Below, piece after piece: positions 31,405-51,375 of a stretch of DNA of 64,000 nt. The notes under the pieces were generated by a model that saw only the letters and a program-made list of their open reading frames with translations, made no database searches and had not been told where the DNA came from. Position 1 is the stretch's first letter, and the number at the start of each line of letters is the position of its first letter. The DNA lies in NCBI GenBank assembly GCA_025457865.1, contig JALOTP010000012.1, forward strand, positions 1 through 64,000, in the 5' to 3' direction. Source of the stretch: Thermoplasmatota archaeon. GTDB lineage: Archaea; Thermoplasmatota; Penumbrarchaeia; Penumbrarchaeales; Penumbrarchaeaceae. Both the position numbers and the translations under genes were made by a program.

Positions 31405-31471
31405 GATGGTGCGGGCGCCGGGACATCTGGAGGGTCCAATAAGTGACGATAAACCAACTCCAGATGTCCAG
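31405..31471. repeat. Copy A: 18-bp tRNA-Gly 3'-end duplicate plus 12-bp hairpin
   Basis: gATGGTGCGGGCGCCGGGA shared with the tRNA 3' end, then GGACATCTGGAG (31421-31432) / CTCCAGATGTCC (31458-31469). Confidence 0.85.
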
Positions 31472-31527
31472 CTAAAAAGATAGTATCAAAAAATAATACT
31501 TTTTAGAGTATTAGATCAATGTCAAGA

Positions 31528-31567
31528 ACCATTTTACGAGAACATAGAATGATCGACGAAAGTAAAA
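31528..31567. repeat. 40-bp direct repeat, unit 1
   Basis: accattttacgagaacatagaatgatcgacgaaagtaaaa, identical to 31740-31779. Confidence 0.9.
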
Positions 31568-31618
31568 CGGATGAAAAATCACTTCGTGATTTTCCAAGTC
31601 TTTGTCCTATGGGCCAAA

Positions 31619-31685
31619 GATGGTGCGGGCGCCGGGACATATGGAGGGTCCAATAAGTGACGAAAAACCAGCTCCAGATGTCCAG
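31619..31685. repeat. Copy B: 18-bp tRNA-Gly 3'-end duplicate plus hairpin
   Basis: Near-identical to 31405-31471 (offset 214); GGACATATGGAG / CTCCAGATGTCC. Confidence 0.85.
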
Positions 31686-31739
31686 GAAAAATGAAAAATA
31701 ATTTAAATGCCATTTTTCCGTGTATGATCTATGTAAAGC

Positions 31740-31779
31740 ACCATTTTACGAGAACATAGAATGATCGACGAAAGTAAAA
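31740..31779. repeat. 40-bp direct repeat, unit 2, abutting the tRNA-Gly 3' end
   Basis: Identical 40 bp to 31528-31567. Confidence 0.9.
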
Positions 31780-31856
31780 TGGTGCGGGCGCCGGGATTTG
31801 AACCCGAGTTCCTAGCTTGGCAAGCTAAAGTGATGACCAGTCTACACTACACCCGC
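31780..31856 (-). tRNA. tRNA-Gly (GCC) with encoded CCA
   Basis: Reverse complement GCGGGTGTAGTGTAGACTGGTCATCACTTTAGCTTGCCAAGCTAGGAACTCGGGTTCAAATCCCGGCGCCCGCACCA folds as a cloverleaf; anticodon loop TTGCCAA. Confidence 0.95.
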
Positions 31857-51034: not shown

Positions 51035-51170
51035 ATCATTTCCTGGCCAGCAGTAAGAGAGATGCATATTTCAACTGTTCGATTCATGGACAATGGAAAT
51101 GGCGACTGGGTCAAAGGGAAGAGCAGATTTAATAATGGACCTGACATTTGACCCGCTGCCAACGCACCTT

Positions 51171-51252
51171 GCGAGGGTAGCCAAGTGGTTAACGGCGACA
51201 GACTCAAGATCTGTTCCTTAGTGGTTCGTCGGTTCGAATCCGGCCCCTCGCA
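51171..51252 (+). tRNA. tRNA-Leu (CAA)
   Basis: GCGAGGG...CCCTCGC acceptor, GCC/GGC D-stem, ACAGA-CTCAAGA-TCTGT anticodon arm, long variable arm, GTCGG-TTCGAAT-CCGGC T-arm. Confidence 0.93.
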
Positions 51253-51292
51253 TCTCATTTTAATATTATCAAAGAGAGGCCGGATTCGAACC
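51231..51292. repeat. Inverted repeat whose left arm is the tRNA-Leu T-arm and acceptor 3' strand
   Basis: GGTTCGAATCCGGCCCCTC (51231-51249) against GAGAGGCCGGATTCGAACC (51274-51292); 18 of 19 paired, 24-nt spacer. Confidence 0.9.
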
Positions 51293-51375
51293 TTGGTTCC
51301 TTTGGAACGTTAGCATTGAGAGAGTCAAAAAGTTCCAAAGGTCTGGAAAATGCCCAAGGCATTTTTCAAAGACGG

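What the first reader, a model, noticed from the sequence alone, without database searches (positions are those of the whole stretch)
31738..31785. tRNA 3' strands sit in inverted repeats with 24-nt spacers at both tRNA loci
tRNA-Gly: GCACCATTTTAC/GTAAAATGGTGC, a perfect 12-bp repeat including the CCA end, spacer 31750-31773 = 24 nt. tRNA-Leu: arms 51231-51249/51274-51292, spacer 24 nt; second Leu copy 24 nt. Other hairpins: 31421-31469 and 31635-31683 spacers 25 nt, 31529-31570 spacer 24 nt, 51299-51341 spacer 23 nt. Loop length is conserved while loop sequence differs between loci. Some short-loop hairpins are exceptions. A fixed spacing suggests a common mechanism (size-constrained template switching or a protein recognising the hairpin) or a functional trailer that competes with tRNA folding and 3' processing.
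Basis: partly seen in the sequence, partly recalled or inferred. Interest (0 to 1): 0.82.

Follow-up and report, generated by a model that had tools for sequence, protein, structure and literature searches.

The report
tRNA-end arrays of self-matching mini-elements
In a family of archaea, about half of all tRNA genes are followed by tandem copies of tiny mobile DNA elements whose hairpin arms match the tRNA they sit beside and whose loops are nearly always 22-25 letters long, which points to an undescribed DNA-insertion system aimed at tRNA 3' ends.

Summary
Across 117 tRNA flanks in four genomes of the family, inverted repeats with 23-25 nt spacers number 97 against 0.6 in shuffles. Control Thermoplasmatota genomes have none. 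The hairpins belong to tandem arrays of 110-230 bp units. Each unit ends in a copy of the local tRNA's 3' end (21 of 39 tRNAs here; 2 of 35 in controls). The commonest unit ('type A') carries two ~12-bp hairpins with 22-25 nt loops bearing TCGTCAATT. All 34 pairs show double substitutions across 91 copies. G-T and A-C mismatches are about equally rare (39 against 62), whereas host tRNA stems give 55 against 1. Complementarity is therefore kept in DNA, not RNA, which argues against the 'trailer competing with tRNA folding' idea. Congeneric genomes have filled and empty orthologous sites. Unit bodies cluster by genome, not by tRNA. The units are therefore mobile, and arms and end-copies adapt to each tRNA. 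The best reading is non-autonomous elements inserted site-specifically at tRNA 3' ends through folded DNA. The recombinase is unproven: own-genome searches found no Cas1, Y1 transposase or reverse transcriptase, only one XerA-like enzyme. No Rfam match or published description was found.

The parts
31780..31856 (-). tRNA-Gly(gcc), target gene of the array
   Evidence: ARAGORN; Infernal RF00005 58.1 bits
31633..31787 (-). Unit 1, type A element (h1, linker, h2, h3), next to the tRNA
   Evidence: Covariance model R1, 146.4 bits
31738..31785 (-). h1 of unit 1: 12-bp arms, 24-nt loop with TTTCGTCGATC; the left arm includes the tRNA end GCACCA
31685..31719 (-). h2 of unit 1
   Evidence: inverted repeat I7; helix 2 of A1
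31635..31683 (-). h3 of unit 1: arms with 25-nt loop (TTTTTCGTCACTT); its outer end overlaps the tRNA-end copy
31621..31637 (-). First copy of the tRNA-Gly 3' end (TCCCGGCGCCCGCACCA)
   Evidence: direct repeat D3; 15/15 identity
31571..31620 (-). Small extra insert with a short-loop hairpin (31572-31596), between the tRNA-end copy and h1 of unit 2
   Evidence: the same module occurs at tRNA-Ser
31419..31575 (-). Unit 2, type A element with a damaged left arm of h1
   Evidence: R1, 139.4 bits; 86-92% identical to unit 1 over 70-76 nt
31529..31570 (-). h1 of unit 2, 24-nt loop
   Evidence: D2
31421..31469 (-). h3 of unit 2: 12/12 bp arms, 25-nt loop
31407..31423 (-). Second (distal) copy of the tRNA-Gly 3' end
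51170..51254 (+). tRNA-Leu(caa)
   Evidence: ARAGORN
51231..51292 (+). Palindrome made of the tRNA-Leu T-arm/acceptor strand, a 24-nt loop and its inverted copy
   Evidence: 18/19 bp
51299..51341 (+). Body hairpin of the Leu unit ('type C'), 23-nt loop
51344..51368 (+). Short-loop hairpin of the Leu unit
   Evidence: 11-nt arms, 3-nt loop
51373..51428 (+). Second copy of the Leu palindrome: tRNA 3' end, identical 24-nt loop, partly decayed right arm
   Evidence: 56-nt direct repeat, 93% identity, period 138

Best explanation
These are tandem arrays of small, non-coding, non-autonomous mobile DNA elements that insert site-specifically at the 3' ends of tRNA genes. Each insertion leaves a direct repeat of the tRNA 3' end (T-stem 3' strand to CCA, 13-17 nt, sometimes with downstream flank), so the tRNA stays intact and the site can be used again. 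Shown: the repeat, the arrays, filled and empty orthologous sites, spread between different tRNA genes within a genome, the fixed 22-25 nt loops with a common motif, and complementarity kept at DNA level. Inferred: the recognised form is a folded DNA hairpin whose stem reconstitutes the target (tRNA-end) duplex, and a recombinase supplied in trans (the XerA-like tyrosine recombinase is the only candidate found) joins it to the tRNA end, in the manner of folded-DNA att sites. Palindrome correction by template switching would then make the element's arm match the new host tRNA.
For: End copies follow 21/39, 16/31, 15/25 and 8/22 tRNAs in four genomes, against 2/35 in controls and about 1% with another gene's flank. 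G004 and G009 (same genus) differ at orthologous loci: Asn, Gln, Thr(tgt) and Ser(tga) filled only in G004 with 154-159 bp extra; Leu(taa) and Arg(cct) filled only in G009; Leu(tag) has a tRNA-end copy only in G009. Body nearest neighbours lie in the same genome for 65/91 copies (label-shuffle mean 11, max 22), and 36 of those sit at a different tRNA end. Local fit: the outer six pairs of h1 match 5.5/6 in place, 3.5/6 with swapped arms. Covariation: 34/34 pairs with double changes, 94.2% paired against 63.7% shuffled and 39-54% slid. DNA level: 39 G-T against 62 A-C, tRNA stems 55 against 1. Loops: h1 22-24 nt in 85/91 and h3 24-26 nt in 82/91, with TCGTCAATT.
Against: No recombinase is linked to the units. 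The XerA-like enzyme is probably the housekeeping one (NF040815, 183.9 bits, below its 220 cut-off), and tyrosine recombinases also occur in genomes without the elements and were not detected in three incomplete element-bearing ones. The fold was not observed. Arms can be kept complementary by mutation bias alone. G-T/A-C skews per helix are mild and in opposite directions, so the folded strand is unclear. One end-copy in G002 (L116) does not match its tRNA. Some 'empty' loci still hold an inverted T-arm copy, so they may be remnants of losses.
Confidence: 0.6

Rival explanations
1. Mutational origin: DNA polymerase stalls at tRNA genes, folds back within about 24 nt and copies the tRNA 3' end as an inverted repeat; unequal recombination between tRNA-end repeats builds the arrays. 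No dedicated enzyme.
For: Arms match the local tRNA; G-T and A-C mismatches are about equally rare, as arm copying would give; quasipalindrome template switching is an established mutation type (PMC7202029).
Against: It does not predict a conserved loop motif and a three-helix body shared by genomes of several families, nor nearest relatives at different tRNA genes, nor 154-159 bp insertions at empty sites. Control genomes of the phylum show no 23-25 nt peak.
Confidence: 0.15
2. RNA function: the units are structured 3' trailers or small RNAs co-transcribed with the tRNA that control processing or termination.
For: Units lie 3' of tRNAs and are rich in helices with compensatory changes; T-rich stretches follow many tRNAs.
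Against: G-T against A-C is 39 to 62, while tRNA stems give 55 to 1; no Rfam family matched; units come and go at orthologous loci; the inverted copies would compete with the tRNA's own T-arm.
Confidence: 0.1
3. Casposon-derived miniatures: Cas1-type casposase inserted them, since casposons also duplicate a tRNA-end target.
For: The casposase of Aciduliprofundum boonei (same phylum, own knowledge) targets the tRNA-Pro gene through a TCAAATC motif with a 14-bp duplication (PMC6614799). The duplication here is 13-17 nt at the same end of tRNAs.
Against: No Cas1 match in the own genome nor in 8 of the 10 genomes of its family. No terminal inverted repeats pair the two ends of a unit. The repeat here starts at the T-stem itself, not 8 bp beyond the TCAAATC motif (compare).
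Confidence: 0.07
4. Integron-like cassettes: the palindromes are attC-like sites and the units are mostly empty cassettes inserted at a tRNA that acts as attI.
For: Structure rather than sequence is conserved; tandem units; in G030 contig C31, tRNA-Leu end copies flank single genes (an OmdA-domain gene and a zinc-type dehydrogenase gene). Archaeal integrons exist (PMC9668308).
Against: No integron integrase passes its cut-off; the only tyrosine recombinase of the own genome matches the integron model in two pieces. Nearly all units lack genes. attC boxes were not seen by eye.
Confidence: 0.08

Closest known systems
Casposons (Cas1 casposase; A. boonei, M. mazei)
   Same: Archaeal insertion next to tRNA genes with a target duplication of similar length that includes the tRNA 3' end
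   Different: Cas1 absent here; no terminal inverted repeats; units 110-230 bp and gene-free; duplication starts further upstream
Integron cassette arrays / CALINs (attC sites)
   Same: Tandem small units, structure-conserved palindromes with free sequence, occasional single-gene cassettes (G030)
   Different: Arms copy the host tRNA; sites sit at tRNA genes; no IntI; loops fixed at 22-25 nt
CTX-phi type integration through folded single-stranded attP by Xer recombinases (PMC3089051)
   Same: Inverted copies of the target sequence could fold to rebuild a duplex attachment site in single-stranded DNA
   Different: Target is dif, not tRNA; CTX-phi is a phage; here no Xer binding or single-stranded form is shown
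rtT repeats of the E. coli tyrT operon (from own knowledge)
   Same: Repeats of about 180 bp behind a tRNA, each with a copy of the tRNA 3' end
   Different: Confined to one operon and described as RNA-coding; no Rfam rtT match here; no tRNA-matched palindromes known to me
MITE / REP-type palindromic repeats with Y1 (TnpA-REP, IS200/IS605) enzymes
   Same: Short non-coding palindromic mobile repeats
   Different: Y1 transposase not found in any genome of the family or order; REPs are not tRNA-specific

Membership tests
Casposon | Cas1 (casposase) encoded or available in the genome | tested here: not met
   0 matches in the own genome; 2 of 10 genomes of its family have Cas1
Casposon | Terminal inverted repeats at the two ends | tested here: not met
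   Ends of type A units form separate hairpins (h1, h3), not one TIR pair
Casposon | Target duplication at a tRNA 3' end | tested here: met
   Direct repeats and filled/empty comparison, but the start of the repeat differs from the A. boonei site
Integron | Integron integrase with the IntI-specific extra domain | tested here: not met
   The only PF00589 protein of the own genome scores 169 against a 265-bit cut-off on TIGR02249, in two pieces; the genome is 89% complete
Integron | attC sites recognised by an attC covariance model | not tested
   No attC model was on hand
Integron | Gene cassettes between sites | tested here: inconclusive
   Only G030 contig C31 shows single genes between end copies
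IS200/IS605 or REP/RAYT | Y1 transposase in the genome | tested here: not met
   0 of 12 genomes of the family and order
Xer-exploiting (CTX-like) folded attP | Xer recombinase present | tested here: met
   One XerA-like gene in the own genome
Xer-exploiting (CTX-like) folded attP | Xer cleaves the folded hairpin stem and joins it to the target | not testable with these tools
   Needs biochemistry
Structured RNA (tRNA trailer or sRNA) | Helices tolerate G-U but not A-C on the transcribed strand | tested here: not met
   39 G-T, 62 A-C; tRNA stems 55 and 1
Known Rfam RNA family | Match above the gathering score | tested here: not met
   Only tRNA and an rRNA end were found in ten array loci

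The most novel reading that the evidence does not exclude
A new recombination system in Thermoplasmatota in which a recombinase reads a folded DNA hairpin of fixed loop length (about 24 nt, TCGTCAATT) and inserts mini-elements at any tRNA 3' end, while the element's own arms are rewritten to mirror the new host tRNA: a target-copying mobile element that keeps tRNA genes intact and can build cassette arrays behind them.
Probability: 0.35. Interest if true: 0.88.

Novelty: new variant of a known kind. Interest (0 to 1): 0.76.

Why it matters
Insertion at tRNA 3' ends is a recurring theme in microbial genomes, but known inserters typically carry a fixed attachment sequence for one tRNA. Here gene-free elements of 110-230 bp occupy about half of the tRNA genes of a genome, for many amino acids, and their arms follow whichever tRNA they sit beside. 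If confirmed, this would be a structure-reading, target-adapting insertion system, it would help explain why these draft genomes break at tRNA genes, and it might yield a tool that inserts DNA at tRNA ends without damaging them.

Tried and rejected
Casposase, Y1 transposase and reverse transcriptase as the engine: searched and not found in the own genome. Rfam RNA families: none. A viral source: no match to the h1 pattern in IMG/VR contigs. An RNA-structure reading was favoured after the first covariation result and dropped after the G-T/A-C comparison. An autonomous parent element was sought through distant tRNA-end copies: the one clear case, 5.3 kb in G019 contig C14, is a tRNA-Arg island with its own (broken) integrase gene beside the tRNA and an array at the far end, so it looks like an ordinary island inserted in front of an array. 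The XerA gene lying beside an array in G004 has no tRNA beside it at the recombinase loci read in G000, G002, G010 and G019. A polarity test (end copies decaying away from the tRNA) was spoiled by chance matches at four mismatches and is not used. One pattern hit in Novosphingobium was not followed up and is probably chance.

Full report
What was checked. The window is part of a 2.7-Mb draft genome in 108 contigs, 89% complete. Two element-bearing relatives can be named through public records: Thermoplasmata archaeon AUK266 (matching G010) and Candidatus Thermoplasmatota archaeon PL23a_bin.111 (matching G019). The own genome's name was not shown.

Beyond the window. Reading the 3' flanks of 41 tRNA genes of the same genome shows that about half carry tandem units of roughly 110-230 bp. 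Each unit ends with a copy of that gene's own 3' end (T-stem 3' strand, acceptor strand, often CCA). With a 14-nt probe and at most two mismatches within 400 nt, 21 of 39 tRNAs have such a copy, against 4 of 362 when the flank of another tRNA gene is used. The figures are 16/31, 15/25 and 8/22 in G002, G004 and G009, and 2/35 in two genomes of the phylum without type A elements.

Spacer test. Inverted repeats with perfect arms of at least 8 bp peak sharply at spacers of 23 (51), 24 (31) and 25 (15), against 0.2, 0.0 and 0.4 in dinucleotide-preserving shuffles. Repeats anchored on the tRNA give 21 in the 24-26 bin against 0. The control genomes have no repeats at spacers 19-30. A smaller anchored peak at 42-44 (9) reflects inverted copies of the T-arm further downstream. 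The tRNA's 3' half also matches its own flank better than the flanks of other tRNA genes in G000, G002 and G004 (p 0.004-0.008), marginally in G009 (p 0.05), and not in controls (p 0.69).

Anatomy. Three broad unit classes were seen. Type A (Gly, Leu, Ser, Ala, Glu) has h1 (12 bp, 22-24 nt loop), an 18-nt linker ending in ACG or TACG, h2 (10 bp), and h3 (12 bp, mostly 25-nt loop) right before the tRNA-end copy. At Gly, Leu and Ser the left arm of h1 runs from inside the tRNA (GCACCA or GCGCCA) into the element. Type C (Arg, Leu-caa, Met, Trp, and many tRNAs of the relatives) carries an inverted copy of the T-arm; in several relatives' copies the loop motif appears in the opposite orientation (TTGACG). 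Type B occurs at Ile, Val, Met and Pro. The window shows type A twice at tRNA-Gly and type C once at tRNA-Leu.

Type A model. A covariance model of 18 own copies finds 24 copies in the own genome. Of 59 relatives and then 217 genomes of the phylum, matches occur in all ten genomes of its family, in both of the next family of the order, and in two more families (f10, f20). One borderline further hit (G013, E 0.004) was disregarded. Nearly all copies read in the relatives sit directly behind a tRNA or a tRNA-end copy. Over 91 copies from 14 genomes every one of 34 pairs shows double substitutions, 94.2% of cells pair (63.7% after shuffling, 39-54% when partners are slid), and the loops share TCGTCAATT.

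DNA, not RNA. If RNA pairing were selected, G-U pairs would be tolerated and A-C mismatches purged. tRNA stems of the same genomes show exactly this: 1296 Watson-Crick, 55 G-U, 1 A-C. Element helices show 2680 Watson-Crick, 39 G-T, 62 A-C, leaving out one doubtful end pair of h2. The counts are of sequences and not independent events, but the contrast is large. So complementarity is kept in DNA, either because a folded DNA form is used or because one arm is recopied from the other.

Mobility. G004 and G009 belong to one genus and share synteny around many tRNAs. At Asn, Gln, Thr(tgt) and Ser(tga), G004 has 154-159 bp more than G009 with a direct repeat of the tRNA end; at Leu(taa) and Arg(cct) G009 has the unit; at Leu(tag) only G009 has the tRNA-end copy. 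Some sites without an end copy still carry one hairpin, so some differences may be losses. Element bodies, with arms and end copies left out, have their nearest neighbour in the same genome in 65 of 91 cases (label-shuffle mean 11, maximum 22), and 36 of these neighbours sit at a different tRNA end. Elements therefore spread (or are homogenised) between different tRNA genes inside a genome. Yet h1 arms fit the local left arm: 5.5 of 6 outer pairs, against 3.5 with arms from copies that have another left arm. Examples are TGGCGC opposite GCGCCA at Ser genes and AGGTGG opposite CCACCT at a Trp gene.

Mechanism. The shown steps are insertion at tRNA 3' ends with duplication of the end, repeated use of the site, and DNA-level hairpins of fixed loop size. 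The inferred steps are that a folded hairpin is the substrate, that its stem rebuilds the target duplex, and that a recombinase acting in trans joins the two. Folded attachment sites are known for CTX-phi with Xer recombinases (PMC3089051) and for integron attC sites (PMC9668308). Template-switch correction of quasipalindromes (PMC7202029) would explain the local fit. In the own genome one XerA-like tyrosine recombinase was found and no Cas1, Y1 transposase or reverse transcriptase; DDE and serine enzymes were not searched. The XerA link is by elimination only.

Known or new. Rfam gave no family other than tRNA and an rRNA end. Searches of 5.39 million open papers found no description, though most subscription papers are not held. 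The nearest systems are casposons, integron arrays, CTX-type folded att sites and the E. coli tyrT repeats; each shares one aspect, and most of those tested miss a defining one.

Noticed in passing
L157 (G030 contig C31) 3346-5520: Copies of a tRNA-Leu 3' end with type A elements flank single genes (an OmdA-domain gene and a zinc-type dehydrogenase gene), next to GATase and FGE-sulfatase genes: cassette-like.
   Followed up: partly
L162 (G019 contig C14) 4491-9885: A tRNA-Arg(tcg) carries a 5.3-kb island with an integrase gene split into two frames beside the tRNA; a type C plus type A array with a tRNA-Arg end copy lies at the far end.
   Followed up: partly
L128 (G004 contig C108) 512-1324: The XerA-like recombinase gene lies a few hundred bases from a tRNA-Gly array; no tRNA was found beside the recombinase genes read in G000, G002, G010 and G019.
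   Followed up: partly
G000 contigs C24, C37, C87, C108; G001, G003, G004, G009 and G002:C3 (503 bp): Many contigs end inside these arrays, so assemblies break there and true array lengths are probably underestimated.
   Followed up: no
L201 (G009 tRNA-Asn), L013, L029, L047 (own genome): tRNAs without an end copy still have an inverted copy of the T-arm about 20-60 nt downstream, possibly a remnant or a minimal unit.
   Followed up: no
L116 (G002 contig C47) 1410-1910: An array at tRNA-Ser(tga) in which one end copy (TCCCTGCACTCGTACTC) does not match the tRNA, while the next one does.
   Followed up: no
window 31571-31620; L042; L128 about 1720-1810: A smaller module (hairpin plus GGAAAATC..GATTTTCC) is inserted between a tRNA-end copy and h1 of a type A unit, damaging its left arm: a further element class.
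   Followed up: no
L005 (G000 contig C41): The 3' end of the 16S rRNA gene lies about 1.4 kb upstream of the tRNA-Ala(tgc) array, so arrays may separate the genes of the rRNA operon.
   Followed up: no
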